DNA of 64,000 bases from Pinibacter soli. GTDB taxonomy: Bacteria; Bacteroidota; Bacteroidia; Chitinophagales; Chitinophagaceae. The translations under genes and the position numbers were made by a program. The notes beneath the pieces were generated by a model. That model was not told the origin of the DNA, searched no databases, and was given only the letters and a program-made list of their open reading frames with translations. Shown piece after piece: positions 1,601 through 63,660 of the stretch. The DNA lies in contig NZ_JASBRG010000007.1 in NCBI RefSeq assembly GCF_029961145.1, positions 2,646,189 to 2,710,188 on the forward strand, given 5' to 3'. Within the stretch, counting starts at the first letter, position 1. The number at the start of each line of letters is the position of its first letter.

Positions 1601-1888
1601 CACGCAGATCACGCTGATTTACGCAGATTTTGAATTTCGTCCATTGAATTAACTCACTGCTGTAGCATGAATTTTACCGCAAAGAATACGCAAAGAAGTC
1701 GGCAGAATAATAAATGGTAATACGCAAAAACGCAAATACAACGAAGACATCCCTTTGACTTTTCTTTCCTGATTGAACATAAGCAAACTAAATCCTGCTT
1801 AACAAACCTTCGCTTTCTTTGCTCAACCTTAGCACTCTGCGGTTAAAAAAATCTATGCAAATCAGTTAAATCAGTGTCATCTGCGTGC
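1601..1888. repeat. Long imperfect inverted repeat between convergent genes
   Basis: The outer arms (about 1601-1630 and 1848-1888) both read, on opposite strands, as a CACGCAGAT...GATTTACGCAGATTT word. Inner arms near 1674-1700 and 1809-1844 carry an ACCGCAAAG/CGCAAAG word. The arms fill the gap between the pncB stop and the glycosyltransferase stop. It could form a hairpin on either strand, so a two-way terminator is plausible. Confidence 0.7.
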
Positions 1889-1892
1889 TTTC

Positions 1893-3074
1893 TCACGCCA
1901 GTTTTTGTCTTCCCGCTTTCTCCCAGATAACGGTTTGATTGCCTTTAAGGAAACGGTTGAAACCCATGAACGCCGCGGCATTCATGAACACGAAGTAGTA
2001 AGGAACGTATAAACTTTTAATCTTAATATTTCTGTTCGCAAATTGCCAGCCGATGAAGGCAAGTGTGTAAAACACGATCTGCGCAACCATAATCCCCTTG
2101 TATAACAATAATGGAGATAAAAATACGATCAACAGGTTGGCAAAGAACATAATGACCAAACACAACGGACAAACTGCCCAGCGCAATACGCGGTGAGAAA
2201 TGTATTGAAAAGAAAGCAGCCTGTACTTAAATATGTTCAGCAGATCTTTCAGCATTTGCATGGCCTGAAAACCTCCTGCACAAATACGCACTTTTCTTTT
2301 CTGCTCTTCTTTCATTGATGAAGAAGCTGTTTCAATGGCGAAGGCTTTGGGTTCATACTTAAATAAATAACCTTTCATGCAAATGCGCAGCGACAATACA
2401 AAATCTTCTATGATCGTCCCCTCCTGCACGGGTTCATACAATTCCCGACGCACAGAAAAAAGTTCCCCAGCCGCACCTACAATGGTGCTAAGGCTTGAGT
2501 CCAAACGTTTAAGCGCTGATTCATATTTCCAGTAAAGGCCCTCTCCCGCTGCGGAAGCTTTATCGTCGATTTGCTTGATTATTTTTTTCTCGCCTGCCAC
2601 GCCGCCTACTTTAGGTGAAGCGAAATGCTTAACAAGTTCTGATACACATTCTTTATTCAACAACGTATTTGCATCGCTAAATACAAGGATATCAGCTTTT
2701 GCGTATTGCACGGCCCTGTTCATGGCAAAGGCTTTTCCTTTTCTTTCGGGAGAGTGTAATAGTTCGAAGTTGCTGTTTGCTTTTACCAGTTGCGGTGTTT
2801 TATCAGTTGAACCATCAGTAATAAAAACGACTTGTAATTTATCTGCCGGATAATCGAGTTCTTTGGTATTCTGTAGTTTGTGTAAAATAAAATCTTCTTC
2901 GTTGTATGCAGCAATAATCAGTGAAACAGTTGGCTGAAAGTTTTGCTCAGTTAGATTTTTGCGGGTAAACAACTTCTTTATGGCAACCAGGAAAGCGATT
3001 AGAAATCCATAACCCACATAAGCGTAAAACACAATAAATAAACATATCCAGAAGAGTATCTGCAAAAAAAGCAT
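1893..3074 (-). CDS. Membrane-anchored family 2 glycosyltransferase
   Basis: This is an inverting GT2 (GT-A fold) enzyme that transfers sugar from a nucleotide sugar, probably to a polysaccharide or lipid in the inner membrane. From the chosen start it has 393 residues. There is one N-terminal membrane helix (about 3-31), then the catalytic domain with SLIIAAYNEE (51-60), FITDGSTD (84-91) and the SDAN metal site (D134), an IIEDF segment, and KRKVRICAGGFQ in place of the usual QxxRW helix. Three hydrophobic helices close the C terminus. The frame is open to 3143, but the extra 23 residues read through the repeat-rich intergenic DNA, so the ATG at 3074 is preferred. The acceptor is unknown. It resembles hyaluronan/poly-GlcNAc-type synthases but is not identifiable as one. 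Confidence 0.9.
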   Translation of the reverse strand: MLFLQILFWICLFIVFYAYVGYGFLIAFLVAIKKLFTRKNLTEQNFQPTVSLIIAAYNEEDFILHKLQNTKELDYPADKLQVVFITDGSTDKTPQLVKANSNFELLHSPERKGKAFAMNRAVQYAKADILVFSDANTLLNKECVSELVKHFASPKVGGVAGEKKIIKQIDDKASAAGEGLYWKYESALKRLDSSLSTIVGAAGELFSVRRELYEPVQEGTIIEDFVLSLRICMKGYLFKYEPKAFAIETASSSMKEEQKRKVRICAGGFQAMQMLKDLLNIFKYRLLSFQYISHRVLRWAVCPLCLVIMFFANLLIVFLSPLLLYKGIMVAQIVFYTLAFIGWQFANRNIKIKSLYVPYYFVFMNAAAFMGFNRFLKGNQTVIWEKAGRQKLA

Positions 3075-3149
3075 TGGGTCTGCGATTTGGTAAGTGTGAA
3101 CAAGATAGGGCGAACGCGTGAAAATTGAAAGCAATTTTCGCAAATTTGA

Positions 3150-3312
3150 AAATATGGTAATGTGCTAATTTGAAAATGTGGAAATTTAAAAATTTGAAAA
3201 TGCTTTCTGTGCAGCATGATCAACTGCTCTTGGTTTTTCGAAATTGTGATTAACATCAAACTGGAGGCGACCCCAATTTTCAAATTTTCAAATCAGCACA
3301 TTTTCAAATTAT
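3150..3312. repeat. Inverted repeat of TTTGAAAAT words in a divergent promoter region
   Basis: GCTAATTTGAAAATGTG and further AAATTTGAAAATG copies at about 3160-3205 are mirrored by CATTTTCAAATTATTAGC-type sequence at about 3277-3315. This is the same word family as the hairpins at 28346-28562 and 63520-63660. Unlike those, it sits between two gene starts (glycosyltransferase and trmD). Confidence 0.6.
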
Positions 3313-3327
3313 TAGCGGCTGCGCCGC

Positions 3328-3335
3328 TATCTTTG
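3328..3335 (+). promoter_or_regulatory. -7 promoter box directly in front of trmD (leaderless start likely)
   Basis: TATCTTTG matches the Bacteroidota -7 consensus TAnnTTTG exactly and ends four bases before the trmD ATG. Transcription would begin within a few bases of the start codon, giving a leaderless or nearly leaderless mRNA. No good TTG -33 box was found at the right distance. Confidence 0.55.
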
Positions 3336-3339
3336 CATT

Positions 3340-4011
3340 ATGCGAATCGACATTATCTCTGTATTGCCGGAATTATTGGAAAGTCCTTTTTCTCATTCTA
3401 TCATGAAACGTGCACAAACAAAGGGTTTGCTGGAAGTGCATGTGCACCAGTTAAGGCAATGGGCCGTGAATGAGTACGGACAGGTGGATGATTATCAATA
3501 TGGTGGTGGTGCCGGCATGGTAATGATGTGTGAGCCTTTGGCAAAAGCGATCGAGCATTTACAAAGCGAAAGAAAGTATGATGAAATCATCTACATGACA
3601 CCGGATGGCAAACGCTTTGATCAACAGATTGCCAATCGTTTATCTCTTTACGAAAATCTTTTGGTCATCTGCGGACATTATAAAGGTATTGACGAACGCA
3701 TTCGTCAGCATTTTGTTACGCTTGAAATTTCCATTGGCGACTACGTCCTCAGCGGTGGAGAACTTGCTGCTGCTGTTGTAATTGACGCCATCGGCCGTAT
3801 TATACCGGGCGTATTAAACGACGAAACTTCTGCACTTACTGATTCCTTCCAGGACAATTTATTGGCTCCTCCTGTATACACACGTCCCGCTAACTTCCGC
3901 GGCTGGGAAGTACCGTCGATATTACTTAGCGGCGATCCAAAAAAAATTGAACAATGGCGCTACGAACAAGCTGTTGCGCGGACTACCGAACGAAGACCGG
4001 ACTTGGAGTAA
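3340..4011 (+). CDS. trmD: tRNA (guanine-N1)-methyltransferase
   Basis: TrmD methylates N1 of G37 in tRNAs that read CNN codons, using S-adenosylmethionine, and prevents +1 frameshifting. The 223-residue protein has the SPOUT-fold trefoil-knot motifs: [31 protein letters not shown] and the C-terminal [16 protein letters not shown]. Length and start match the family ([17 protein letters not shown]). The gene is not beside rplS or rimM here, unlike in many other bacteria. It is divergent from the glycosyltransferase, and its promoter box almost touches the ATG. Confidence 0.97.
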
Positions 4012-4130
4012 TTGAAATTGAAAGTGGTCGAACATTATGGTTGGTGTTCGGCGTTTCGTTTTATAAACAGGTGCAAGATCAAAGTTTCTGAATAAATCAT
4101 TTTCAATTTTCAACCTATTTCTTCTCAACG

Positions 4131-5425: not shown

Positions 5426-5908
5426 TTAGTGCGTATAAGTCAGCGTCTCCGCATAGCTAACACCCAGTTCGGTAAACTGCACTTTTATTTTCAATGTAGT
5501 TGCATTAAGCACGAGCAGCTGGGCAGATTGCTCAGAACCTGTTGCACCTACAAGTATCACAGATTCATTGTTTGAGAATTTCCAGTTTGTAGTTTGTATC
5601 ACCTGCGGGTCGGTTGGACTGCATTTTGTAGTGCCTTCATCGAGAGTAAGACCACCATCAGTTTTGAATATTAAAAGATCGTCTTTATCACATGCACTGT
5701 AAAAATTAAAAACTTCGTTCTCAACACGACCATCTCCGTCGTAATCAATGGCAGGATCAAAGTAGTCGCTTGTTAATTTCCAATTGCCGGAAGTTAGCAG
5801 TTGGGTTTTGCTTGCTCCTCCGTTATTACTGCTGTCATCTTTCTGGCATCCGGCAATTACGGCTGCAGCCAAAATAAGCAGCGCAGCATTCTTTGTAAAC
5901 TGTTTCAT
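5426..5908 (-). CDS. Lipocalin-like lipoprotein, paralog C of four
   Basis: From the ATG at 5908 this is a 160-residue lipoprotein (MKQFTKNAALLILAAAVIAGC). The frame stays open to 5974, but all three sisters begin at the equivalent MxQF residue, so the shorter start is chosen. The domain has GNWKLTSDYFDPAIDYDGDG, with the acidic loop DYDGDGRVENE, cysteines in SACDKDD and TTKCSPTDPQ, and TNWKFSNNESVILVGATGSE. It ends with a repeated-strand segment GVSYAETLTYTH, very close to paralog D. A role in calcium-dependent binding or surface display is possible but unproven. Confidence 0.85.
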   Translation of the reverse strand: MKQFTKNAALLILAAAVIAGCQKDDSSNNGGASKTQLLTSGNWKLTSDYFDPAIDYDGDGRVENEVFNFYSACDKDDLLIFKTDGGLTLDEGTTKCSPTDPQVIQTTNWKFSNNESVILVGATGSEQSAQLLVLNATTLKIKVQFTELGVSYAETLTYTH

Positions 5909-6069
5909 AATACAGGTTTTTAGGTTTCCATTGTTATTAAAATGAATACAAATAATACAATAGCGGTTTTGCATAGATGATTGGAGGGGCTATACCAAAA
6001 AATCAGCGACGAAGAAAAAAGCAGGCTGGTTGCTATTCAGTGGGAAAATACTCCGTAGAAGATACGAAA

Positions 6070-8314: not shown

Positions 8315-8321
8315 AGAAGGG

Positions 8322-8506
8322 GACGCAGATTTTTATGATTGTGAAGATTGGTTAAGATTTTTCTTTAAGTTTTTTGAAATTAAGATTTAAGACTGTTTAT
8401 CTATTATACATGCAACTCACATTTTGTGTGTGTTTGTTGCAATCATTTTCGTTGTTCTTTTTTATCTATATCTTAATAATCATCACGATCATAAAAATCT
8501 GCGTTC
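8322..8506. repeat. Inverted repeat between convergent genes (ACGCAGATTTTTATGAT word)
   Basis: GACGCAGATTTTTATGATTG at 8322-8341, continuing to 8356, is mirrored at 8472-8506 (ATCATAAAAATCTGCGTTC). The arms are about 35 bases with few mismatches and flank an AT-rich loop. It fills the gap between two convergent stops. The CGCAGATT word recurs at 1601-1888, 38275-38375 and 49780-49810. Confidence 0.7.
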
Positions 8507-10178: not shown

Positions 10179-10327
10179 TTTCACGCAAAGGCGCGGAGGA
10201 AACGCAAAGGACGCAAAGTCCTCTTGACTAATCGTAAACAAAAAAAAAGTCCGACACTTATTTAAAGTGCCGGACTCCCTATAACCCTTTGCGTCCTTGT
10301 TTTTCTTCTTTGCTTCTTTGCGTGAAA
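10179..10327. repeat. Inverted repeat of CGCAAAG words 3' of the alpha-2-macroglobulin gene
   Basis: TTTCACGCAAAGG...GGACGCAAAG at 10179-10218 is mirrored by CTTTGCGTCC...CTTTGCGTGAAA at 10287-10327, which ends against the stop codon at 10330. The terminator stem at 10248-10276 sits in the loop, giving a nested structure. Confidence 0.7.
10240..10276 (-). terminator. Intrinsic terminator of the alpha-2-macroglobulin gene
   Basis: On the minus strand, AGTCCG and CACTT pair with AAGTG and CGGACT around a short AT loop (one internal mismatch), followed directly by nine T residues. This is a classical intrinsic terminator placed about 55 bases past the stop. Confidence 0.8.
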
Positions 10328-10329: not shown

Positions 10330-13300
10330 TCACTCCACGTTTACACGCACACCATCACTGTGGCTCGTAAACTCAGGTGCATACATGCATTGAATGGTTG
10401 TAACACCGTTGCTGAAATTCCCTTCGTGCGTTACAAACAGTGGGTATTCGAAAACGTACGTGCCTTTTCTTATGTAAGAGAAGAAAAAGTTGGCGCTTGC
10501 ATCCTTGGTGCTTTCGTAATAGCCCAAACCGTCCTGCCATTTGTACGTGCTGATCACATTTACAGGTTCCATGCAGCTTGCACGCATATCTTTCATATGC
10601 ACATATTCCATGTCACGATCAGCACGAAGCTCGATGCGCACTTTGATTTTATCTCCCACTTTCAACACATCGTTTTCATTTACAGGTTGTAGTACAGGTC
10701 CGCGATCGCTATTCTTTTCAACAAACAATTTCTTCGTCAGCTTAAGCGGCGTCGCAGATGATGTAATATTTTCCAGTCTCTCAAAATATTGCCAGTACAC
10801 GCTTCCCCACGATGATGTATTATTGGCATTACCAGAAACACTCACCGTAATATTTCCCATTTCTGGTTTTACAAACGCGCCATCGATAGTGGTTTTGAAA
10901 TATCCTGTTCCAGCTTCAGATTTACTATCTGTACTGCTGATGGTTTTGTCGCCCAATTTGATTTTAACCGCAGGTGTTTCACTTAACCAGTCGCCGCCTT
11001 GTAGCAACAACGCGTAACATGCGTCGGCTGTTGCTTTTGTTGTTTTCCAGTTATTGGTTTGTTTGTTTTTCAGCAACCATGTTTTAAGATCGTTTACTGT
11101 TTTAGTATCGCCTGAAATTTCAGCAAATGCTTCGATCATTAACGATTGCGTTTCAACCGGAGCCTCGTACCAGAAATAACCGGATCTAACATCTTTCCAA
11201 TACATGCCCTGTTCTTCATTTACAATCGCATTTTGTTGTAAAGATTTAATGATTGCCGCGGCGTTCGCTTTGTCACCTGTTCGGTTCAGCGCAAGAGCAA
11301 TCATCCCTTTTGCATAGACACCTTGCTGTAACCAATATTGCTGTGCCTGTTTTCTGTAATAGCTAATCGCGTTCATGGCAGAGCCGGGAATGGCGATATC
11401 ATTGTAGAAGCTGCGCATGTACAAATATTGTATCGCGATATAGCTGAGGTTGTTTTTCTTCAAATCAACTTTCCTTTTTACAAGCTCATTGTAATCGTCG
11501 GCTATTCTTTTGTCAAGATAGGCAACTGCATTTTTTGAAATCCCGTTCCAATCTTGTTTTGTTTGTTGCAACGCTCCCAGCTTTTTCAAATGGCCGATGC
11601 TGCTGGCGATGTATTGCGTGATGTATCTGTCATCAGGTCCGCCTTTGAACCAAACGAATCCTCCGTTTTCACTTTGCAATTGTTTCAGCTTTTCGTAGGT
11701 TGTTTGCAAGCCTGCGTTCATGCGAACCATGTCAAACAACAATGCGATGTTTTTCTTTTGCTGCGCTTCGTTCTTAGCTTCCAATACCCATGGCGTTTCT
11801 TCCAGCAATACAGATTTCAGTTCTTCATTTTTCTGCAGATTGCTCAGCAAAGCAGATGAATCTGTCGCGTTCCATTTTTCTACAATTGCTTTCAGCTTGG
11901 GCGCTTTATTTGCAATCATTCCTGCCAATGCATTTGCATAGTAACGGTTGAATGTTTGCTCTGCACACTCGTATGGAAAATCAGTTAAGTAAGGCAGAGA
12001 CTGCACTGCATACCACGCCGGATTGGATGTGTATTCAACCGTCAAAGCATGTTGTTGCAATGTTTCGCTTTTTCCTGATTGCAATAGTTTTTCGAACGTG
12101 AATGATTTGGAGTTGGTATTGCGCAAATTCAACGGCATGCTTTCTGTAACCAACATGCTGTTTGCCACAACCGGCAATGCCATTTCTTCTCCATCTCTTA
12201 AATTTCCGGAAATGGCTTTGAAACGATACACTACTGCATTGTTGTAACCATAAGGAATGCTTACGCTAAACTTCATGGGAGCGCTTTGCCCGGCACTTAC
12301 CGTAAAGTATTGCAGTGGCTGAATGTTTTGGAACCAACCATCTACAGGCTGCATCGTGGATGCATTCAGCAATTCTAGCTGTACTGTTCCCGTCATTTCT
12401 TTATCGCTCATGTTCACCACTTTTGCACTGAGCTCTATTTTATCTCCCTCACGTAAAAATCTTGGTGCGTTTGGCTGGATCATCAACTCTTTTTGTGTTA
12501 CCACATCTACAGTTGAGTAGCCGAACGAAAGATCCTTTGTATGTGCCAATGCCTGGAATTTCCATTTGGTTAATGCTTCCGGCATGGTGAAACTAAAGCG
12601 GATGTTACCTTCAGCGTCTGTTTTCAAGTCGGGGAAGAAGAAGGCTGTTTCGTTGAAGTTTTTGCGGAGTTGTACACTAGCCATTTGTTCTTGCTGATTT
12701 GGAGCCGTAGTATCCTGGATGGCTACTTCATTTACTGCGACATAAGACAAAGCTGCTCCGGTCACATCTTTCTTTTTCTGCGTACCATATCCTATTACAA
12801 CCACTTCATTATTAGCTTTTACATCAACCCCTGCAACCCTTCCTTGTAGCATAACACCCGGTGGCGCCAGCTTTGATTCAACGTTTATATAATACGGTGT
12901 AATTAACACGTCATAATTTTTTTCGAAAGAAAAATTTCCATCGCTGTACAAATATTTTTCCTGTGATTGAATGGAAAGAAAGTTGACTCTGCTATTCCAA
13001 TTGGCGTACAAACTATTAAACGGCCACACTCCCGGCTTTTCCCAAGCGTGAGGCTTAAACTGATCCAGCGATGCATCGTACATGCCGGCCAACACTTCTG
13101 CTGCTACTTTTTCCTTTTTATTACCTGTTATTTTAATGCTCCATTTTTCTTCACTGCCAGGTTGCAGTTTATCGCGCCAGGTTTCATATGTTATGCTCAA
13201 TTCCTTGTTTCTCCATGGCACGAGTATGCTATTATTACTGGTATAAAAACGGTTATTTTTTACCATAAAATAGATCATGCCAATGCCGCCTCTATCTTCT

Positions 13301-16446: not shown

Positions 16447-16621
16447 TCGCTTGGAAAATTTATTCAAGTTATCAATGTTGTAATGAAGATGCAATTAATA
16501 ATAGGATTACACAAATGCCTTGACATGCTGCGGGACCATTTTGTTGCTTTAACAATCCGCTAACGGTTGTATTTTAAACATAATTTCCCATTAACCGTCT
16601 TATATATAAAATGATCAAATT

Positions 16622-17015: not shown

Positions 17016-17180
17016 CCGGCTCCGTAGGAGCAAAACGTTCGTAGAGAAATCTGACAATGCACGGTTCTAATACCAGCTCCGTAGGAGCGACACGTAATTT
17101 GACATATCGCTCCTACGGAGCTGGTATTGAAATGTGGACGATGTCTTTTCTACGAACATGTCGCCCCCTCTGGGGCTAAA
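17016..17180. repeat. Composite palindromic element built on GCTCC-GTA-GGAGC
   Basis: Its core is a perfect 22-bp inverted repeat: 17069-17090 pairs with 17107-17128 around a 16-base loop. A further copy of the GGCTCCGTAGGAGC core lies at 17018-17031, and TCGTAGA / TCTACGA words flank both sides (near 17039 and 17150). The layout suggests two related units inserted side by side in opposite orientation, a REP/BIME-like element. Confidence 0.75.
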
Positions 17181-18250: not shown

Positions 18251-18387
18251 GAATTAATAATTAATAATTAATAATTAAGAGGGCAGCATTCAATAGTGAA
18301 TACCACCCTCAATTTTTTAACCACTTTTGCAACTTCGCTTTTGTCAGGCAGGCAGCCGTATTAATTCTTAATTATTAATTATTAATT
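18251..18387. repeat. Mirrored TTAATAATTAATAATTAA repeat 3' of mlaF
   Basis: A 21-base arm at 18259-18279 is the perfect reverse complement of 18367-18387, and the left arm continues as a tandem AATTAATA run from 18252. The right arm ends three bases from the mlaF stop at 18390. The loop holds no gene. Confidence 0.75.
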
Positions 18388-19223: not shown

Positions 19224-19309
19224 AAAGAAGAATAATTCAAAAGTTAAAAGTCAAAAGTCAAAAACGGATCCACCATTTTTACTTTTGAATTTTTAATTTT
19301 TACTTTTTG

Positions 19310-20047: not shown

Positions 20048-20084
20048 TTATAACAAATTGAAAATCTTATTCCCTAATAATGCT

Positions 20085-20092
20085 CAAATGTA
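20085..20092 (-). promoter_or_regulatory. -7 promoter box of mlaE-mlaF
   Basis: The minus strand reads TACATTTG (exact TAnnTTTG), just downstream of the long GTACGA hairpin. The predicted leader is about 32 bases. Confidence 0.55.
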
Positions 20093-20110
20093 AACGTAAA
20101 AATGGGAAAA

Positions 20111-20199
20111 GTGTACGATGTACGAAGTACGGTGTACGAAATTCGTTAGAATGCCAATCCTAAAACAATTTCGTACACCGTACTTCGTACATCGTACAC
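20111..20199. repeat. Perfect 33-bp inverted repeat of GTACGA words 3' of maeB
   Basis: 20111-20143 is the exact reverse complement of 20167-20199, with a 23-base loop. Each arm is itself built from repeated GTGTACGA/GTACGAAGTACG words. The right arm ends five bases from the maeB stop. A degenerate copy of one arm occurs at about 23296-23325. Confidence 0.9.
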
Positions 20200-20203
20200 C
20201 CTG

Positions 20204-24964: not shown

Positions 24965-25050
24965 GGAATTGAAAGTTGAAAATTGTTAGGAGTTCATACA
25001 TAGGCAGCATGTTTCATTAAAGAATCTCCTAACAACTATCAACTTGAATA
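24965..25050. repeat. Mirrored repeat between convergent genes (AAGTTGAAAATTGTTAGGAG word)
   Basis: AAGTTGAAAATTGTTAGGAG near 24972-24992 is mirrored by CTCCTAACAACTATCAACTT near 25026-25045. The arms almost fill the gap between the two convergent stops. Confidence 0.65.
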
Positions 25051-27633: not shown

Positions 27634-27720
27634 TTGGTAGTTGAAAATGGAGAGTTGATAGTGATGGTTGACAGTTGGAGATCTTCTAACAACTATCAAC
27701 CAACAACTAACAACTTCCTA
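27634..27720. repeat. Mirrored AACTATCAACCAACAACTAACAAC repeat
   Basis: AGTTGGTAGTTG...GAGAGTTGATAGTG...GGTTGACAGTTGG words (27634-27677) face CTAACAACTATCAACCAACAACTAACAAC words (27686-27714). It lies between the SRPBCC stop and the ABC ATPase start. The CAACAACTAACAACCAACAAC word also occurs inside the coding sequence at 51700-51725. Confidence 0.65.
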
Positions 27721-28257
27721 TTAATTTTCGCTTATTTTTTTCAATTTCGCCAAGCCACCGTTAAAATCTTTGCCGAGGCCTTCTTCCATGTTCATGAATT
27801 TTGAAAAAACATTGAACGGATATGGAAAGCGGCTGTCGAAGCCCCAAACGACTTTTGTACCACCTTGCTCATCAGTTAAATTTACGTAAGCAACGGCACG
27901 GCTATCAAACGGTTCTATGAAGTGAAGATCTGTTTCAATGCGGTTAGGTGCTTCTATTTTTTTGATTGTCTGGCTACCACTTCCAACATCTTTATTTCCT
28001 TTCCATGTAGAAACGGCGCCAACGGTGCCATCCTGTCCCTGTATGCTTTTCTGCATATTCGGATCACGATCGTTCCATGGGGACCATTTGTCCATTCCGG
28101 CGAGTGTTCCTACATTCTGCCAAACCTTTTCCTTTGGTGCATTTATAATAATACTTTTTTCAAAATGAAAATCTCGGGAAATAAAAATCCCAGCGATTAA
28201 GACGATTGCAATAACAGCAACGACAAACAGCAGGATGTACTTTAATACTTTTTTCAT
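27721..28257 (-). CDS. SRPBCC (START-like) family protein with N-terminal membrane anchor
   Basis: The chosen ATG at 28257 gives 178 residues (MKKVLKYILLFVVAVIAIVLIAGIFI, an N-terminal membrane helix). The open frame extends to 28374, but that part reads repeat DNA. The rest is one SRPBCC domain: FHFEKSIIINAPKEKVWQNVGTLAGMDKWSPW (the hallmark start), then GSWxGN-like VSTWKGNKDVGSGSQTI, TDLHFIEPFDSRAVAYV and a long C-terminal helix MNMEEGLGKDFNGGLAKL. Such domains bind hydrophobic ligands. The ligand is unknown. The domain probably faces the periplasm. Confidence 0.87.
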   Translation of the reverse strand: MKKVLKYILLFVVAVIAIVLIAGIFISRDFHFEKSIIINAPKEKVWQNVGTLAGMDKWSPWNDRDPNMQKSIQGQDGTVGAVSTWKGNKDVGSGSQTIKKIEAPNRIETDLHFIEPFDSRAVAYVNLTDEQGGTKVVWGFDSRFPYPFNVFSKFMNMEEGLGKDFNGGLAKLKKISEN

Positions 28258-28345: not shown

Positions 28346-28562
28346 AATTGAAAATTGAAAATGAGATGGATCAATTTGAAAACTTGAAAATATGGAAATT
28401 TGAAAATGCTTTCTGTGTTTATTTCCTTAAGAAGAGGCTGATTAATTCTGTGTTACAAATTGGAAACAAATTTGGCCAACTTTTCCCGAGAAGTTGCATT
28501 CATTTTCAAATTTCCATATTTTCAAATTGCCACATTTGCGCTCCCATTTTCAATTTTCAATT
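28346..28562. repeat. Two-tier mirrored repeat 3' of the prolyl oligopeptidase gene
   Basis: Outer arms AATTGAAAATTGAAAATG (28346-28363) and CATTTTCAATTTTCAATT (28545-28562) are perfect complements, and the right arm includes part of the peptidase stop codon. Inner arms 28373-28408 and 28501-28528 match with few gaps (TTGAAAATATGGAAATTTGAAAATG). The loop has no gene. Confidence 0.85.
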
Positions 28563-30675: not shown

Positions 30676-30721
30676 GTTTAAGATTTGATGGCTTGTGTAG
30701 GCGTAAAATACGGAAACAATC

Positions 30722-30888
30722 AGGAATTAGAAATTAGAAGTTGGGCGCGACAATGCTTCGACAAGCTCAGCCTTTCACTTCGCTCACGCTATCAGGCAGA
30801 GCTTGTCGAAGCCTTCTCGATAACTTAAAAACTTTTAATTTCTAATCCTAATTTCTAGTTCCTAGCTCCTAATTCCTAATTCCTAATT
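30722..30888. repeat. Mirrored AATTAGGAATT-type repeat with inner CTTCGACAAGCTC palindrome
   Basis: AGGAATTAGAAATTAGAAG (30722-30740) faces TTTCTAATCCTAATTTCTAGTTCC...CCTAATTCCT (about 30838-30886). Inside, GCTTCGACAAGCTC (30755-30768) pairs perfectly with GAGCTTGTCGAAGC (30799-30812). The CTTCGACAAGCTC core is a well-known type of dispersed intergenic palindrome. Confidence 0.75.
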
Positions 30889-35359: not shown

Positions 35360-35592
35360 TACCACTAAGGCAATAAGGACACAAAGTTTCACTAAGGAGG
35401 AACGCTTCGCGTTCTTTTTTACCACGGAGGAAAGGAGTTCTTTTTCACAGAGAGAAGGAGATTTAATACTCTTCTCCGTCCCCTCTATCCCTCCAGGGTT
35501 ACTATTTATTTCGGAGCACATCCTCCTTTCCTCTGTGAAAAAAAACTCCTTTCCGCCGTGGTTAAAAAGGCAGTTGGTGTCTTAGTGGTAAT
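35360..35592. repeat. Long mirrored repeat 3' of treY (ACCACGGAGGAAAGGAGTT word)
   Basis: Outer arms TACCACTAAGG...AAGGACAC (35360-35382) and GTGTCTTAGTGGTA (35577-35590), and inner arms TTACCACGGAGGAAAGGAGTTC...CACAGAG (35419-35452) and CTCTGTG...AACTCCTTTCCGCCGTGG (35531-35561), nest into one large hairpin. The right arm includes the treY stop codon (35582-35584). Confidence 0.75.
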
Positions 35593-38267: not shown

Positions 38268-38375
38268 GATTGAGAGAAGGGAACGCAGATTTTCATGATG
38301 GTCATGATTTATTATGAATAGGAAAAAAATCTTACCTGATCATAACAACCTTAATAATCTGCATTCCCTTCTCTC
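38268..38375. repeat. Mirrored GAGAAGGGAACGCAGATT repeat 3' of mscS
   Basis: GAGAGAAGGGAACGCAGATT (about 38271-38291) pairs with AATCTGCATTCCCTTCTCTC (about 38355-38374) with one mismatch, and further ATCATGA-type words pair inside. It lies between the mscS stop (38374) and the treY start. Confidence 0.8.
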
Positions 38376-39162
38376 ACGTCATTCCTGGAAGCTTAATGCC
38401 CGCCTCGCTTATATCTTCCAATAGCTTTTCCTGTATGATCATTTGATTATCGATAAAGCCATGTGCCTCAAGCCATGCGCTGATCATTACTTTATAGCCA
38501 TCAGGATCAAACGATGATATGCCAGTTCTGAACTCGGGTTCTTTCAATACGTCTTTATGCTCTGTCAATGTTTTTGAAACGGCATCCTTTACTTCATTGT
38601 AACTAATCCCATAGCTGAATTTCATTTCAATATCCAATCTGCGCTTGCCCTGCATGCTGGTATTTATGATTACTTCGTTGGATAGCTTGCTATTAGGAAT
38701 GATGACAGTTTTGTTGTCGTACGTGAGGACTACCGTATAGAATATCTGGATAGAAGTTACAATCCCTGAGTTGCCTTGCGCAGTAATGCTGTCTCCAACT
38801 TTGTATGGCTTTAGCAGAAGAATAAGAATGCCACTCATGAAATTTTGCAAAGTGCCGGATAACGCCAAACCCGCGGCTACACCAAAGGCACCAATCAAAG
38901 CAGTAAAGATGGTTACTTTTACCCCGATAATATCCATTAACGCAAACACCAAAAGTAATTGCAGAGCGACGCTGATCATACTGATAAGAAACGGCTGTAA
39001 AGTGGGATCAACATCTTCCCTGGTCATTAACTTTCTGATCCATTTCTTCAGCAGCCTGATGAGCCATTGCGCAATAATGAAAATGACAACGCCCAGCAGT
39101 ATGTGGCCTCCGTGCGTTAACATCCAGGTCTTTAATGCGGCATAAACTTCTTCCAGCTTCAT
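38374..39162 (-). CDS. Small-conductance mechanosensitive channel (MscS type), first copy
   Basis: The 262-residue inner-membrane channel opens on membrane tension to release solutes in osmotic downshock. Three helices: about 18-38, 60-82 and the pore helix (VTIFTALIGAFGVAAGLALSGTLQNFMSGILILL), followed by a beta domain (YKVGDSITAQGNSGIVTSIQIFYTVVLTYDNKTVIIPNSKLSNEVIINTS) and a C-terminal mixed domain. The pore helix has the Gly/Ala packing of MscS. A second, longer MscS-type gene lies at 49840-50928, so the two may differ in gating threshold. Transcribed alone. Confidence 0.93.
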   Translation of the reverse strand: MKLEEVYAALKTWMLTHGGHILLGVVIFIIAQWLIRLLKKWIRKLMTREDVDPTLQPFLISMISVALQLLLVFALMDIIGVKVTIFTALIGAFGVAAGLALSGTLQNFMSGILILLLKPYKVGDSITAQGNSGIVTSIQIFYTVVLTYDNKTVIIPNSKLSNEVIINTSMQGKRRLDIEMKFSYGISYNEVKDAVSKTLTEHKDVLKEPEFRTGISSFDPDGYKVMISAWLEAHGFIDNQMIIQEKLLEDISEAGIKLPGMT

Positions 39163-39229
39163 AAATGAACTTGCTTGTGAAGCAGTAACACTTAAAATAT
39201 TATGCCGGGGGCGAAATAGGAATCGTTAA

Positions 39230-39320
39230 ACGCAAAACGTCAATCGTGAATAGGTTTCCAACAATTCAACATGGCTGCGGAAAAACCATTCGCGATTGAC
39301 GCTTCACTATTCACGACTAT
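39230..39320. repeat. Mirrored CGTCAATCGTGAATAG repeat 3' of the TlpA-like gene
   Basis: AACGTCAATCGTGAATAGG (about 39236-39254) faces CGCGATTGACG...CACTATTCACGAC (39290-39317). The arms match only in part, with shifted sub-words. The right arm reaches the stop codon region of the TlpA-like gene. Confidence 0.5.
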
Positions 39321-40525
39321 TTTAGCACTTCTGCAAGCTTCTTATCAAGATCTTCTCCTCTTAAAGCTTCTGCAATAATATTTCCCTGCGGATCGATTAA
39401 CACATTGTAAGGTATGCCCTGAAAATTAAATGTTTTTACTGCATTGCTGTTCCAGAATTGAAGATCACTTACATGCGTCCACGTCAGTTTATCAGCTGCG
39501 ATTGCTTTTTGCCATGGATCTTTTTCTTTATCCAAAGACACACCAAGAATGGCAAAATTTTTATTCTTATACTTGTTGAAAGCTGCAACAACATTCGGGT
39601 TTTCTGCTCTGCAAGGTCCGCACCAGCTAGCCCAGAAATCTACCAGCAAATACTTGCCTTTAAAATCCGCGATGGAAACATTTTTTCCGTTTACATCCGG
39701 TAAAGTCAATGCCGGTGCCTGTTTACCCACCCACGATGTTGTTGGCGCCTCTTGCTGCGTTTGTGCCTGCTTAACCTGGTTGTCGTAGTTTGTCTTTAAC
39801 TGGGTCAACGGTTTGTAATCAGGAAACTTTTTCACGCTTTCATTCAATGCATTTTCAAACATTTCCTTTTGGAAAGAGCGTGAAGAAAATCCGAGTATGA
39901 ATAAATTGATGGCAGGATGGGAATTATTGCTGGTCAATGTTCCGTTTATAAAGCTGTTCAATTTATCCAATTCGCCATTCTTTTTTTCTGTGGCAAGGAT
40001 AATAAGACTATCGGATGCTCCGCTTTTCTTTAAACTGTCCATTGCCTTAAAAGCCACGTTGGCACTGTAAATTTTATCGCTATAAGTGTACAGGTAGTCT
40101 TTTAATTGCTTGCTTGCTTCAGAACCGCTTACCGAGTAGTAATCTTTGTGCTTCGCAAAATCTATGTCTACAGTAATTTCTTTCCCATCGTTGATCAATG
40201 CTACAATGGGGCCGTTCTCTACTGACAGTTGGTAAATATTTTCCTGTGCGCCATTACCTTTCAAAGTAAGTGTACCGTTGCTCGCTTTTAAAACACCGGT
40301 ATCGAGTAATATTGGGTTCTGATCTTCGCCAAAAGGAATTTCTTCAAAAAACACTTTTACTGCGCTCACCACTTTTGCGGATTCGCCAGGCAAGTGCATC
40401 AGTTTATCGGCATTTTTATAGTTCACTATTACTTTAAATGCACCGTCCTTTTTAGTGTTACATGCCATCGCGAAAAGCAACAACACAGAGGTAATTGCCA
40501 GTAATGTTTTTCTTAAATATTGCAT
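39317..40525 (-). CDS. TlpA-like thioredoxin-fold lipoprotein with DUF4369 domain
   Basis: The 402-residue lipoprotein (MQYLRKTLLAITSVLLLFAMAC, lipobox) has an N-terminal DUF4369 domain (about 25-130; FKVIVNYKNADKLMH..., GTLTLKGNGAQENIYQL), a helical middle region and a C-terminal thioredoxin-fold AhpC/TSA-Redoxin domain with the CxxC site in WASWCGPCRAENP and GIPYNVLIDPQGNIIAE. In Bacteroidota such proteins reduce disulfides or act in thiol maintenance in the periplasm. It lies 16 bases downstream of gatB on the same strand, so read-through from gatB is possible. Confidence 0.9.
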   Translation of the reverse strand: MQYLRKTLLAITSVLLLFAMACNTKKDGAFKVIVNYKNADKLMHLPGESAKVVSAVKVFFEEIPFGEDQNPILLDTGVLKASNGTLTLKGNGAQENIYQLSVENGPIVALINDGKEITVDIDFAKHKDYYSVSGSEASKQLKDYLYTYSDKIYSANVAFKAMDSLKKSGASDSLIILATEKKNGELDKLNSFINGTLTSNNSHPAINLFILGFSSRSFQKEMFENALNESVKKFPDYKPLTQLKTNYDNQVKQAQTQQEAPTTSWVGKQAPALTLPDVNGKNVSIADFKGKYLLVDFWASWCGPCRAENPNVVAAFNKYKNKNFAILGVSLDKEKDPWQKAIAADKLTWTHVSDLQFWNSNAVKTFNFQGIPYNVLIDPQGNIIAEALRGEDLDKKLAEVLK

Positions 40526-42069: not shown

Positions 42070-42189
42070 TTGAATAACTGAATGACTGAATAACTGAACC
42101 ATTGAATGTTGGTATTCAAATAATTATCCAGCCGTCTATTAGGGGTAACATTCAACTCTGTTATTCAATTATTCAGTTATTCAGTCATT
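42070..42189. repeat. Mirrored GAATAACTGAATAACTGAA repeat
   Basis: TTGAATAACTGAATGACTGA... (42070-42098) faces TTATTCAATTATTCAGTTATTC... (42161-42189). Both arms are built of GAATAACT repeats. It lies between the PDZ-protein terminator and the gatB start. Confidence 0.75.
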
Positions 42190-42220
42190 AAAAAAGGGCA
42201 CAAGCTATACGCTCATGCCC
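42190..42220 (-). terminator. Intrinsic terminator of the 360-residue PDZ protein gene
   Basis: On the minus strand GGGCATGAGC pairs with GCTTGTGCCC (two G-U pairs) around GTATA, followed by six T residues, about 25 bases past the stop. Confidence 0.8.
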
Positions 42221-47875: not shown

Positions 47876-48847
47876 ATGAAAAAAATAAAATATTTCTATA
47901 ATACCAATAGTCTTCGCTATGAAAAGCTTGAAACCCCTTTACACGTAAAACTATTACGGGTGTTGGGCTTCTTAGCCGCAAGTATTGTGACCTCCCTGAT
48001 AATTGTAGCCATCGCCTTCAGATATATAGATTCTCCGAAAGAAAAAGTAATGAGTGGCCGGTTTGAAAACATGCAGAACAATTACGCTGTTCTTCAGGAC
48101 CGGGTACAAAAACTGCAACAACAAATGACGGACCTCGAGAAACGCGACAACAACGTTTACCGTTCCATCTTTGAGGCTGATCCGATTCCCGATAGTGCCC
48201 GAGTAAAGGAAATGGAAAAGAAAAAAGAACTGGAATTGTTGCAGGGTATGGACGAAAACGATCTTTCAGGTTCTATCGCACGTACGCTCAACAACCTTAC
48301 GATGCGTATTGAGTATGAGGATAAATCTTACAACGAAATTGAAGGTTTTGTAAAAAATAAAGAAGTGATGCTGGCGGCGACTCCCGCCATTCAGCCGGTG
48401 AGCAACAAGGATCTTAGCCGTATTGCATCTGGTTTTGGTCATCGCATCGACCCGGTTTACAAAACGGTAAAAATGCACGCTGGTCTTGACTTTGCGGCAC
48501 CGCAGGGAACACCTATTTATGCTACGGCAAATGGGACCATCTCTGTTGCTGGCAATACCGGTAACGGATACGGCAATCACGTGATCATTAACCATGGTTA
48601 TGGTTACGAAACGCTATACGGCCACATGGTAAAAGTGAAATGTTCTCCGGGCCAAAAGATAAAACGCGGTGAGATCATCGGCTATGTGGGCAGCACAGGA
48701 AAATCAACCGGCCCTCACTGTCACTACGAAGTACACAAAAACGGCAAACCTCTCGACCCTGTTTACTTTTTCTATAACGACTTAACGCCTGAGCAATACG
48801 ACCGCTTGTTGAAGATGGCGTCGGCGAGCAATCAGAGCTTTGATTAG
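47876..48847 (+). CDS. Membrane-anchored M23 peptidase (LytM/murein hydrolase type)
   Basis: The 323-residue protein has a short cytoplasmic N terminus, a membrane helix (about 28-50), a coiled coil (about 58-95), a spacer and a C-terminal LytM domain with the zinc residues H201xxxD205 (MHAGLDFAAPQGTP) and H281-C-H283 (GPHCHYEVHKNGKPLDPVYF). All catalytic residues are present, so it should cut peptidoglycan cross-links, or activate others, at the periplasmic face. The coiled coil resembles division-linked EnvC/NlpD-type factors. It is next to a MerR regulator gene on the same strand, divergent from alaS. Confidence 0.92.
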   Translation: MKKIKYFYNTNSLRYEKLETPLHVKLLRVLGFLAASIVTSLIIVAIAFRYIDSPKEKVMSGRFENMQNNYAVLQDRVQKLQQQMTDLEKRDNNVYRSIFEADPIPDSARVKEMEKKKELELLQGMDENDLSGSIARTLNNLTMRIEYEDKSYNEIEGFVKNKEVMLAATPAIQPVSNKDLSRIASGFGHRIDPVYKTVKMHAGLDFAAPQGTPIYATANGTISVAGNTGNGYGNHVIINHGYGYETLYGHMVKVKCSPGQKIKRGEIIGYVGSTGKSTGPHCHYEVHKNGKPLDPVYFFYNDLTPEQYDRLLKMASASNQSFD

Positions 48848-48996
48848 TGGAGAGTTGAGAATGGAGAGTTGAGAGTTGTTTAAATAGCTTAAAACGGTTT
48901 GGAGATTATTCTTCAAACCGTTTTTCTTTTCACAAAACAAGAGTTGAGCTAAACCTTAACTCTCAATTTTCAACTCTCAACTCTCAATTCTCCACT
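48846..48996. repeat. Mirrored GAGAGTTGAGA repeat around the M23 gene terminator
   Basis: AGTGGAGAGTTGAGAATGGAGAGTTGAGAGTTG (as two blocks, 48846-48878) faces CAACTCTCAACTCTCAATTCTCCACT (48971-48996). The left arm starts right at the M23 stop codon. The terminator stem at 48891-48925 lies in the loop. Confidence 0.8.
48891..48925 (+). terminator. Intrinsic terminator of the M23 gene
   Basis: AAAACGGTTTG pairs with CAAACCGTTTT around a 12-base loop, followed by a T-rich tail. It lies about 45 bases past the stop. Confidence 0.85.
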
Positions 48997-49051
48997 GTTA
49001 ACGACTTTTCCACAGTCTCGTAAATCCCCGTGCCACTACCATCAGGGATTG

Positions 49052-49059
49052 TATCTTTA
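49052..49059 (+). promoter_or_regulatory. -7-like box just before the MerR gene
   Basis: TATCTTTA (one base off TAnnTTTG) ends eight bases before the ATG, so the transcript would be nearly leaderless. Confidence 0.45.
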
Positions 49060-49067
49060 CCAAGCCT

Positions 49068-57360: not shown

Positions 57361-57370
57361 ACTTTAAGTT

Positions 57371-57443
57371 TGCCACAGAAGCACTGAGAACACAGAATAA
57401 TTTATTTCTTATCAAATTCTGTGTTCTCAGTGTCTCTGCGGCA
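57371..57443. terminator. Bidirectional hairpin between birA and the S9 peptidase gene
   Basis: A 28-base arm (57371-57398) pairs with 57416-57443 (three mismatches) around 17 bases of AT-rich loop. Both arms are built of a GCCACAGAAGCACTGAGAACACAGAAT word. It occupies most of the gap between two convergent stops, so it should act on both transcripts. Confidence 0.75.
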
Positions 57444-57453
57444 ATCCTCTCTC

Positions 57454-61805: not shown

Positions 61806-61867
61806 TTTATATTTGATCTGGTGGTTTTATCCCAGCTTCACTTTTAAAGCTGTAAATTTACAGCGCA

Positions 61868-61875
61868 CAAAGGTA
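61868..61875 (-). promoter_or_regulatory. -7 promoter box of the ABC exporter gene
   Basis: The minus strand reads TACCTTTG (exact TAnnTTTG), about 62 bases before the ATG at 61805 and five bases before the divergent rbfA start. A TTTG -33-like element lies inside rbfA but with a spacing of about 23 bases, longer than usual. Confidence 0.45.
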
Positions 61876-61880
61876 ATATT

Positions 61881-62261
61881 ATGGAAGAAGGAAAAAGACA
61901 AAAACAGGTGGCCGGTTTGTTAAATGAAGAACTGAACGCCATTTTTCAAAAACTTGGTTTGAGCATGATCGATGGCGGAATGGTTTCCATTTCCTCCGTA
62001 AAAATTACTCCGGACCTGTTCCAGGCGAGAATATATCTAAGTTTTTTTCAGATAAAAGACCCCAAATCTACGCTCAAAAAAATTGAGGAAAGAGAATGGG
62101 AAATCAAAAAAGAGCTGGTTGCCCGCGTAAAAAGCCAGCTGCGCTCTATGCCACAACTTACATTCTACGTCGATGATACATTGGATTATGTATTTAAAAT
62201 GGAAGAATTGTTCAAAAAAATCAATGAGGAACGTCCTTCTTCGGGAGAAGAGAAACCCTAA
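61881..62261 (+). CDS. rbfA: Ribosome-binding factor A
   Basis: RbfA binds the 30S subunit during 16S rRNA maturation. The 126-residue KH-fold protein shows KRQKQVAGLLNEELNAIFQKLG, GMVSISSVKITPDLFQARIYLSFF and LRSMPQLTFYVDDTLDYVFKMEELFKKI, the family layout. It has a few more C-terminal residues (NEERPSSGEEKP), which are probably disordered. It is the first gene of a pair with the permease gene 25 bases downstream, an order I recall from other Bacteroidota. Confidence 0.95.
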   Translation: MEEGKRQKQVAGLLNEELNAIFQKLGLSMIDGGMVSISSVKITPDLFQARIYLSFFQIKDPKSTLKKIEEREWEIKKELVARVKSQLRSMPQLTFYVDDTLDYVFKMEELFKKINEERPSSGEEKP

Positions 62262-62286
62262 GTTTATAGCATAAAAAACTTCCCAA

Positions 62287-63507
62287 TTGAATTTTCTATT
62301 TGCCTGGCGCTATTTCAGATCTAAAAAATCAACCAACGCCATTAACATCATTGCATGGATAAGTGTGCTTGCCATTATGGTTGGCACTGCTTCATTTATA
62401 GTGGTGCTTAGCGTGTACAACGGATTTGAAGATCTGGTAAAGTCGCTGTATGCTTCGTTTTACACGGATCTTAAAGTGGTTCCGGTAAAAGGCAAAACGA
62501 TCATTTTTACTCCGGAAGAATTAGCGAAAATCAAGACCGTACCTGGCGTCAATGCCTATTCGCTGAATGTGGAGGAAAAGGCTCTGATGAGAAACGGCGA
62601 TTGGCAAAGCCTCGTTTATTTAAAAGGCGTAGACTCAGACTACACAAAAGTTACCAGCGTAAAGCAACATGTAAGACATGGCTCCTATGAAACAGGAACT
62701 GCCGATAAACCGGTTGCTGTTTTAGGAATTGGTATCGAAAATGCATTGGCGCTCGAAGCGGAAAAGGCTTTATTGCCTCTAACGGTTTATCTCCCCAAAA
62801 AAGGAATCAACATTGACGCGTCTGATCCGATGCAAAGTCTGGTGGCAGATAATGTAAGTACGTCCGGTTCTTTCGCCATCCAGGAAGATTTTGACAACAA
62901 ATATGTGATCACCAATATCGGCTTCATGCAGCGTATGCTGAATTTACAACCTGATGAATACAGCTCCGCAGAAATTTCATTGAATGCCGGAGCCGATCCT
63001 GATAAGGTGAAACACAATTTAAAAACTGCACTTGGAAACAAGATTGATGTAATTACAAGGTATGAGCAAAACAAAACATTCTTCTCTGCAATGCAGCTGG
63101 AGAAATGGATAATCTATGGTGTGCTTTCTCTAATCCTTACCGTAGCAGCATTTACCATGATCGGCGCACTCACAATGCTAGTATTGGAAAAACAAAAAGA
63201 TATTCAAATATTGAAAGCGCTTGGTACGACTGACGTTAAAGTGCAAGGCATTTTTTTAAGCGAAGGTTTGCTATTGGCCTGTGTTGGCGGCGTTGGCGGC
63301 GTTCTATTGGCTGTGATTATTTGCTGGGCGCAGGAAAAATTTAAGATCATCGCCCTCGAAGGAGGCAGTTTTGTAATCGATCATTATCCTGTAAAATTAT
63401 ATGCATCGGATGTTTTGCTGGTGCTCTTCACCGTTATAATAGTTGCATTGCTGGCGAGTTGGTTTCCGTCGAGAAAAGCATCTCTGCAACCGATAGAACT
63501 GCGCTAA
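62287..63507 (+). CDS. LolC/LolE-like ABC permease (FtsX-type, MacB core)
   Basis: The 406-residue inner-membrane permease has the fold of LolC/E: a first helix preceded by FAWRYFRSKKSTNAINIIAWISVLAIMVGTASFIVVLSVYNGFEDLV, a periplasmic domain (about 65-260) and three C-terminal helices (about 270-300, 320-350 and 375-395; GVLSLILTVAAFTMIGALTMLVLEKQKDIQILKALG). LolCDE extracts lipoproteins from the inner membrane. LolD is not adjacent. There is no ATG at the expected start: the codon used is TTG (62287). It follows rbfA by 25 bases and is probably co-transcribed. Confidence 0.9.
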   Translation: MNFLFAWRYFRSKKSTNAINIIAWISVLAIMVGTASFIVVLSVYNGFEDLVKSLYASFYTDLKVVPVKGKTIIFTPEELAKIKTVPGVNAYSLNVEEKALMRNGDWQSLVYLKGVDSDYTKVTSVKQHVRHGSYETGTADKPVAVLGIGIENALALEAEKALLPLTVYLPKKGINIDASDPMQSLVADNVSTSGSFAIQEDFDNKYVITNIGFMQRMLNLQPDEYSSAEISLNAGADPDKVKHNLKTALGNKIDVITRYEQNKTFFSAMQLEKWIIYGVLSLILTVAAFTMIGALTMLVLEKQKDIQILKALGTTDVKVQGIFLSEGLLLACVGGVGGVLLAVIICWAQEKFKIIALEGGSFVIDHYPVKLYASDVLLVLFTVIIVALLASWFPSRKASLQPIELR

Positions 63508-63511
63508 AGGC

Positions 63512-63660
63512 GCCATGTGGAAATTTGAAAATTCTTTATTGTCGACTACCCAAAGCATTATTTTAACTTCTCTAATATTCAAGATGTTTAAAAGTGAAAA
63601 ATGCTGGTCGCATTTCTCATTTTCAAATTTTCAAATCTTCAAATTGCCGGATAGTCGCCC
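63512..63660. repeat. Mirrored TTTGAAAAT repeat between convergent genes
   Basis: CATGTGGAAATTTGAAAATTC (about 63513-63533) faces CATTTTCAAATTTTCAAATCTTCAAATTGCCGG (about 63620-63652). The same words form the hairpins at 3150-3312 and 28346-28562. It lies between the convergent permease and transketolase gene stops, and its right arm overlaps the latter. Confidence 0.65.

What the first reader, a model, noticed from the sequence alone, without database searches (positions are those of the whole stretch)
1601..63660. A family of long hairpins made of recurring short words marks gene 3' ends across the window
About twenty intergenic gaps contain inverted repeats whose arms are built from a few low-complexity words, each occurring several times in the window (TTGAAAATTGAAA; TTAATAATTAA; GTACGAAGTACG; CACGCAGATTT; CGCAAAGG; GAATAACTGAA; GAGAGTTGAGA; AACAACTAACAAC). 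Nearly all lie just after a stop codon or between convergent stops, and several arms include a stop codon (28561, 35582, 38374, 63639). Different word families fill the same position, so position and mirror symmetry seem conserved rather than sequence. That suggests a spreading class of 3'-end elements (terminators, RNA stabilisers or nuclease targets). Only the 3150-3312 case sits between two gene starts.
Basis: partly seen in the sequence, partly recalled or inferred. Interest (0 to 1): 0.75.

Follow-up and report, generated by a model that had tools for sequence, protein, structure and literature searches.

The report
Seven-base-word hairpins at gene ends
In a genus of Bacteroidota, many genes end in a long DNA hairpin whose two arms are often made of a repeated 7- or 8-letter word; the word differs from place to place, between sister species and between genera, while the repeat length, the mirror symmetry and the position at the stop codon stay the same.

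Summary
In the window's Chitinophagaceae genus, long inverted repeats fill 52-86% of convergent, 33-57% of tandem and 19% of divergent gaps, against 0-1% in shuffles. They form 21 clusters, 13 of them low-complexity words by inspection. Another genus uses its own heptad (568 hits, none in this genus). Periodic tandem hairpins start a median of 2 nt after the stop codon. At the same gap in sister species both arms often carry another word: 34 of 64 classified comparisons. Loops are mostly private to each locus. Arms change in concert (60 columns against 3), yet mismatches show no RNA bias (G-U 101, A-C 98) and no U-tract follows. RAYT and reverse-transcriptase explanations fit poorly. Best reading: REPIN-like inverted arms, grown by slippage and homogenised by template switching, tolerated or co-opted at 3' ends. 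How words spread, and any function, remain unproven.

The parts
1599..1889 (.). CGCAGAT/CTGATT decad-type hairpin between convergent genes, arms 1599-1630 and 1859-1889; the best repeat at this gap is TGAATAAC in G002 and GTCATTGC in G001
3166..3311 (.). AATTTGAA octad hairpin, the only one between gene starts in the window; G002 has AATTGAA heptads there, G001 only right-hand arrays in a 63-nt gap
8323..8504 (.). CGCAGATT/CATGATT hairpin between convergent genes, same family in G001 and G002
10179..10327 (.). CGCAAAGG arms around an ordinary terminator hairpin; G002 has GTACGAT arms and no inner terminator
18252..18387 (.). AATTAAT heptad hairpin (period 7), same family in all three species
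19231..19308 (.). AGTCAAA heptad hairpin
20111..20199 (.). GTACGAT heptad hairpin, 33-nt arms 100% complementary, RNA fold -64.2 kcal/mol, z -13; G001 keeps only the left arm beside a CACTAAGG hairpin
24973..25045 (.). Mixed AATTGAA/GTTGTTA hairpin filling a convergent gap; AGTTGAG in G001, AATTGAA in G002
27646..27722 (.). GTTGTTA-type heptad arrays, right arm overlaps the stop of the 27721 gene; a stronger hairpin stands in G002
28346..28562 (.). AATTGAA outer plus AATTTGAA inner hairpin, right arm reaches into the stop of the 28561 gene; AGTTGAG in G001 and G002
30718..30888 (.). AATTAGG heptad hairpin with a nested CTTCGACAAGCTCAG hairpin (30748-30819) in its loop
34144..34214 (.). AGTCAAA/AGTAAAA heptad hairpin
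35414..35569 (.). CACAGAG hairpin, 47-nt arms; lies beside a remnant of a CACTAAGG hairpin that G001 has alone and G002 has with the CACAGAG hairpin nested in it
38271..38376 (.). CGCAGATT/CATGATT hairpin, right arm includes the stop at 38374
39214..39322 (.). CGTGAAT heptad hairpin; AGTCAAA family in G001
42071..42192 (.). TGAATAAC octad hairpin, same family in all three species
48846..48996 (.). AGTTGAG heptad arms around an ordinary terminator; in G002 the inner terminator is kept while both arms read AATTGAA
53752..53843 (.). AATTGAA/AGTTGAA heptad hairpin (period 7), RNA fold z -5.6; AGTTGAG in G001
57370..57444 (.). CACAGAG hairpin filling a convergent gap; CACTAAGG in G001 and G002
63515..63646 (.). 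AATTTGAA arrays in a convergent gap, right array includes the stop at 63639; pairing weak here (score 21), strong in G001 (59) and G002 (34)

Best explanation
The elements are one class of DNA-level inverted repeats. Shown: about half of the arms are clear tandem arrays of a 7- or 8-nt unit (274 of 585 by the strict test); the two arms carry the same unit in inverted order, mostly purine-rich inwards on both strands; they bracket a mostly locus-private spacer; the outer end sits at or just after the stop codon; words differ between loci, species and genera; arms of one hairpin change in concert. Inferred: arrays grow by replication slippage in ~7-nt steps; the arms are kept alike by polymerase template switching (quasipalindrome correction) rather than by pairwise selection on RNA; arms spread between loci like REP/REPIN arms or by ectopic conversion between arrays; they persist after stop codons because insertion there is harmless, or because a long hairpin of any sequence is useful as a 3'-end barrier for transcripts from either strand.
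For: Strict periods 7 and 8 only; period-7 arrays 1.79/kb non-coding against 0.029/kb coding, period-8 0.77 against 0.035. Same period with other words in some other Chitinophagales loci and 568 hits of GATGACA in another genus. Indels inside arrays are multiples of the period more often than outside (20/100 v 54/540, p 0.006; period 8: 8/34 v 45/540, p 0.008). Concerted columns 60 v 3 cross, with no sense-strand G-U bias. Loops rarely shared. Arms differ around a kept inner terminator (window 48847-49067). Stop anchoring: of 127 periodic tandem hairpins 80% start within 15 nt of the stop, 19% end within 15 nt of the next start. Unpaired arrays in tandem gaps keep the orientation (near the upstream gene end 62 R: 9 Y; near the next gene 19 R: 40 Y).
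Against: The route by which a word reaches a new locus is not shown; no clean empty site was found. By-arm columns (38) show that many hairpins keep old arm differences. No spacer inversion, a known product of template switching, was convincing: 10 of 43 loop pairs scored better inverted, all with low scores. Slippage alone does not explain why the same 30-nt arm stands at two loci of the own sample and one of G001. Only about a fifth to a quarter of array indels are whole units. Non-coding arrays of periods 9-11 are also 2.5-3 times denser than coding ones. Unpaired arrays in divergent gaps show no orientation (5:5 and 5:6).
Confidence: 0.5

Rival explanations
1. Selfish REPIN-like elements mobilised in trans by Y1 (RAYT) transposases, tolerated only after stop codons, with no host function.
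For: REPINs also have conserved inverted arms, less conserved spacers, compensatory changes and decayed singlets (PMC3116915, passages). The own genome has three Y1 matches. The AATTTGAA family shares some loop sequence (5 similar loop pairs) and an AATTTGAA hairpin follows one Y1 gene in G000 and G001; a CATGATT-word arm or hairpin stands in the gap after a second one in G000, G001 and G002.
Against: Y1 matches occur in 29 of 39 genomes searched, own included, most of which have few or no hits of the one word tested. The second Y1 gene has its own GC-rich REPs on both sides and the third has a GC-rich REP beside it. At least 13 word clusters for three Y1 genes; loops shared in 8 of 374 pairs.
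Confidence: 0.25
2. Sequence-independent RNA hairpins selected as bidirectional transcription terminators or 3' barriers; words are neutral fillers.
For: Anchored at stop codons and in slots reused by different families. Stable folds (z -2.8 to -13, five tested). Ordinary terminators tend to be rarer in tandem gaps with a periodic hairpin (5/123 v 33/344, p 0.056; convergent 4/34 v 17/90, p 0.43).
Against: No U-tract and no G-U bias; 181 of 554 arrays have no partner in the gap; slot reuse could reflect gap type and length.
Confidence: 0.17
3. A reverse transcriptase or telomerase-like writer adds templated heptads.
For: Tandem 7-8 nt units of changing sequence resemble templated repeat addition (inference only). 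G002, with the most hits of one word, has four RVT_1 matches.
Against: No RVT_1 match in G000 or G001, which also have hundreds of hits; 9 of the 24 genomes searched have one.
Confidence: 0.03
4. Chance low-complexity inverted repeats or an assembly artefact.
For: AT-rich intergenic DNA makes some short pairs.
Against: Shuffles give 0-1%; seen in three assemblies at orthologous gaps.
Confidence: 0.01

Closest known systems
REP/REPIN elements with RAYT transposases
   Same: Inverted arms around a less conserved spacer, extragenic, compensatory changes, decayed singlets (PMC3116915, passages); REPs mostly downstream of coding regions (PMC3733652, abstract).
   Different: Arms here are often degenerate 7-8 nt tandem arrays; many word families per genome; loops mostly unrelated; two of three own Y1 genes have other, GC-rich REPs beside them.
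Heptanucleotide long simple repeats / TAACTGA repeats (PMC4679880: abstract and sections 3 and 12 read; Mrazek 2007 known only through it)
   Same: 7-nt tandem units, intergenic; the TGAATAAC family contains TAACTGA; [quoted passage not shown]
   Different: Direct repeats, in the main species mostly before start codons, with one indirect repeat reported. Here arrays are mostly paired in inversion after stop codons, in many word families.
Intrinsic (Rho-independent) terminators
   Same: Hairpin after a stop codon.
   Different: No U-tract, long stems, often long loops that may contain an ordinary terminator.
Quasipalindrome correction by template switching (PMC8604942, passages; PMC7202029, listing)
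   Same: Homogenises arms of imperfect inverted repeats.
   Different: Does not by itself move words between loci; no convincing spacer inversion here.
DNA uptake sequences in inverted pairs (recalled; Kingsford 2007 seen only in a reference list)
   Same: Short words as inverted pairs after genes.
   Different: One fixed word per species there, many drifting tandem words here. Not tested.

Membership tests
REP/REPIN with RAYT | Inverted arms separated by a less conserved spacer, forming a hairpin | tested here: met
REP/REPIN with RAYT | The repeat flanks its own RAYT gene on both sides | tested here: not met
   No Y1 gene examined has a word family on both sides. Own Y1 genes: one followed by an AATTTGAA hairpin, one with GC-rich REPs on both sides plus a CATGATT arm on one, one with a GC-rich REP on one side
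REP/REPIN with RAYT | Compensatory changes between arms | tested here: met
   60 by-species columns v 3 cross
REP/REPIN with RAYT | GTAG or CGTC tag at the foot of the hairpin | not tested
   no scan made
Intrinsic terminator | T-rich tract directly after the 3' arm | tested here: not met
   >=5 T of 8 in 4.6% of 109; mean T 0.345 v 0.322 background
Intrinsic terminator | Selection for RNA pairing (G-U tolerated over A-C) | tested here: not met
   101:98 in periodic tandem hairpins v 14:4 in 38 classical terminators; small control
Intrinsic terminator | Transcripts end there | not testable with these tools
   no RNA data
MITE | Copies share interior sequence | tested here: not met
   8 of 374 within-family pairs among 86 loops similar, 5 of them AATTTGAA, which may be an exception
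MITE | Target-site duplication at clean empty sites | tested here: inconclusive
   species too diverged; presence/absence pairs have ragged borders
Heptanucleotide simple repeats | Period-7 tandem units, intergenic | tested here: met
Heptanucleotide simple repeats | Direct repeats without an inverted partner | tested here: not met
   373 of 554 arrays have an inverted partner in the same gap, 181 do not

The most novel reading that the evidence does not exclude
Chitinophagaceae carry a previously undescribed class of 3'-end hairpin in which only the format is inherited (7-8 nt tandem unit, mirrored arms, outer end at the stop codon) while the word is rewritten in both arms together, each genus holding its own vocabulary: a DNA element conserved in format but not in sequence.
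Probability: 0.5. Interest if true: 0.78.

Novelty: new variant of a known kind. Interest (0 to 1): 0.62.

Why it matters
It is a countable natural case, with hundreds of pattern hits of a single word per genome, in which sequence turns over while format and place are kept. It allows tests of slippage, template switching and the spread of repeats between loci, and of whether any long hairpin suffices at a bacterial 3' end. The Rfam scan of the window found nothing, so searches by sequence family can miss such elements.

Tried and rejected
Rfam gathering scan of the window: no match. A common heptad consensus behind all families: 3.40 bits against 3.37 in shuffled heptads, rejected; a purine/pyrimidine pattern RRYYR is commoner than in shuffles (14 of 22 against 7.5, p 0.006), not followed. 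Stop codons as the reason for the words: 16 of 22 heptads against 13.7 in shuffles, weak. Y1/RAYT as the obvious mover. Reverse transcriptase: no RVT_1 match in G000 and G001, four in G002. Spacer inversion: no convincing case. Whole-hairpin dispersal: loops rarely shared. Clean empty sites: not found at this divergence. The pattern AGTTGACAGTTGACAGTTGA reads the same backwards and, in the rows listed, hit AGTTGAG or AGTTGAA arrays, so says nothing about that word. Literature: six searches of the held open-access library; in the listings shown (one search listed 15 of 947, 12 of 34, 15 of 43, 10 of 31) I saw no description of inverted heptad arms at stop codons; subscription papers are mostly missing, so this is no proof of absence.

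Rows dropped before counts: gaps <20 or >800 nt or outside 40-600; ORFs <90 aa ignored; arms <22 nt left out of the period table; 38 of 279 hairpins were singletons and 95 of 341 had no family, whose loop test used 86 own-species loops >=30 nt; one search used arms alike at >=70% over >=16 nt, and one gap can enter up to three times, 24 of 88 hairpin pairs were unassigned; divergent gaps were left out. One search counted palindromes at full length, so its scores are not those.
Full report
WHERE. The window is G000:C11:2646189-2710188 of a 5.9 Mb genome. Two same-genus genomes are held. G002 matches 'Chitinophagaceae bacterium 26-R-25': its contig C2 and JARWSJ010000002.1 are both 1,571,785 nt long and the gene coordinates agree. 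The window is syntenic with G001:C16 and G002:C2; the 20 kb compared match at 78-91% DNA identity, ORF order.

IS IT REAL. Yes. Inverted repeats with arm score >=28 occur in 42/81 convergent, 127/388 tandem and 15/77 divergent gaps of the own species, and in 25/29, 65/115 and 5/26 gaps of G001+G002; dinucleotide shuffles give 0-1%. Convergent against divergent: p 2.9e-5 and 5.8e-7; tandem against divergent: p 0.021 and 0.0009. One word (TTGAAAATTGAAAATTGAAA, up to 2 mismatches) has 496 hits in the own genome against 17 for the reversed control, and 460 and 1095 in G001 and G002; in one genome of each of 21 other genera of the family it has 0-16. A second word (TGAATAACTGAATAACTGAA) has 469 hits in the own genome, while 18 of 197 other Bacteroidota searched have any hit, at most 9 (G001 and G002 were not in that draw). 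Hits overlap, so they are not counts of elements.

ANATOMY. 279 hairpins fall into 21 clusters and 38 singletons; by inspection 13 clusters are low-complexity words and 8 are GC-rich repeats. The shared feature is the period: of 585 arms >=22 nt, 212 have period 7 and 62 have period 8 at >=65% lag identity (shuffle 3.4 and 3.0), every other period at most 3 arms. The rest, among them the CACTAAGG, CACAGAG and CGCAGAT families, are less regular. Period-7 arrays stand at 1.79/kb in non-coding and 0.029/kb in coding DNA, period 8 at 0.77 and 0.035; periods 9-11 are 2.5-3 times denser in non-coding DNA, 6 and 12 are not. Left arms have more than half purines in 82-95% of hairpins by gap type, reading inwards. 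Of 127 periodic tandem hairpins the left arm starts a median of 2 nt after the stop codon, 80% within 15 nt, while 19% of right arms end within 15 nt of the next start; of 34 periodic convergent hairpins 71% have both ends within 15 nt of the two stops. Of 554 arrays in 858 gaps, 181 have no partner in the gap; in tandem gaps these keep the orientation (62 purine: 9 pyrimidine near the upstream gene, 19:40 near the next gene), in divergent gaps they do not. Five window hairpins fold as RNA with z -2.8 to -13.

OTHER GENERA. In 79 loci of other Chitinophagales, long inverted repeats of any kind fill 11/47 convergent, 26/318 tandem and 0/24 divergent gaps. Heptad arms occur in 8 of these 79 loci, with words unlike most of those here. 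In 40 stretches of other Bacteroidota, mostly 20 kb, left arms of period 7 or 8 (>=0.60) appear in 4 stretches from three genomes. Of 66 arms examined (the 79 loci and 20 of the 40 stretches), 18 have period 7 and 7 have period 8. The heptad GATGACA, taken from G022, has 568 hits there, 49 in G006 and none in the 13 other genomes asked, this genus included. So the format reaches beyond the genus with other vocabularies, but in a minority of what was sampled.

TURNOVER. At orthologous convergent and tandem gaps presence is correlated (both / first only / second only / none: G001-own 34/20/5/23, G002-own 25/13/6/25, G001-G002 29/9/4/12; odds ratios 7.8, 8.0, 9.7). Where both sides have a family, 9 of 23, 13 of 17 and 12 of 24 differ; some of these are related words (AGTTGAG/AATTGAA) and some are GC-rich repeats inside an older hairpin. 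Counting only different-family pairs the association remains (Mantel-Haenszel odds ratio 3.2, p 0.0025; singly p 0.36, 0.02, 0.09; pairs share genomes; gap length and operon structure are not controlled). Mosaics occur: an old left arm beside a new hairpin (window 20048-20203 in G001), a hairpin nested in another (35414-35584 in G002), arms of different families at the two ends of one gap. At 48847-49067 the inner terminator is kept in all three species while both arms read AGTTGAG in two and AATTGAA in one.

DNA OR RNA. In 48 same-family ortholog comparisons, 60 columns group both arms by species, 38 group by arm and 3 cross. 28 of the 60 come from five comparisons with partly changed words; without them 32 against at most 3 remain (test). 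Arms therefore change together. If RNA pairing were kept pair by pair, sense-strand G-U intermediates should exceed A-C: observed 223:195 (p 0.19) in all 233 tandem hairpins and 101:98 in the periodic ones, against 14:4 in 38 ordinary terminators found in the same set of tandem gaps (Fisher p 0.046, small control). No T-run follows the right arm. In very long stems a single pair may matter little, so this weakens but does not exclude an RNA role. Among 86 own-species loops, 8 of 374 within-family and 0 of 3281 between-family pairs are similar, so arms rather than whole hairpins recur; AATTTGAA (5 of the 8) may be an exception. Indels inside arrays favour whole units (tests).

MECHANISM. The evidence fits arrays growing by slippage (7 nt was proposed as a polymerase contact length by Mrazek, as reported in PMC4679880, section read; I did not see Mrazek's paper) and arms being equalised by template switching, which is known to homogenise inverted repeats (PMC8604942, passages). 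The spread of words between loci needs a further step, REPIN-like mobility or ectopic conversion, which I could not show. Three Y1 matches exist in the own genome: one gene is followed by an AATTTGAA hairpin, one has GC-rich REPs on both sides and a CATGATT arm on one side, one has a GC-rich REP on one side. No RVT_1 match was found in G000 or G001, four in G002. Position at stop codons may be tolerance or use; slot reuse and tight anchoring lean towards use, the absence of RNA signatures leans against the usual terminator.

NOVELTY. It works like a REPIN in form but fails the RAYT-flank test, and like heptamer simple repeats in unit length but is mostly inverted and post-stop. I saw no description of it in the listings of six searches. 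I file it as a new variant of a known kind.

Noticed in passing
window 17037-17157: GC-rich REP hairpin (CCGTAGGAGCGACACGT type); the same family stands beside the Y1 gene at G000:C11:242721 (L058) and its decayed copy in G002 (L064), a possible RAYT-REP pair.
   Followed up: partly
window 30748-30819: CTTCGACAAGCTCAG hairpin nested in the loop of an AATTAGG hairpin; G002 has a GTCATCCCGACGAAGG hairpin in the same gap and G001 neither, so GC-rich repeats seem to insert into loops.
   Followed up: partly
L111 around 5427-5991 (G000:C9): Second Y1 gene flanked on both sides by GCAAGGCT / GTTGCC-type palindromes, also in G001 (L113) and G002 (L114); a CATGATT-word arm or hairpin lies in the same gap.
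   Followed up: partly
G001 gap matching own2 gene 184: Insert with ends AATTCAATGTC(G/T)TTTAGTTAAG nested in an AATTAGG hairpin; a pair with the same end, 93% identical over 209 nt, exists in the own genome, perhaps a young MITE.
   Followed up: no
G001:C1:142791-142908 and similar: Long AGTTGAG arrays (about 17 units) in G001 and G002, longer than any listed for the own genome: perhaps a recent expansion of one heptad.
   Followed up: no
window 10330-16494 minus: ORF of 2054 aa whose 3' end is followed by the CGCAAAGG hairpin; protein not analysed.
   Followed up: no
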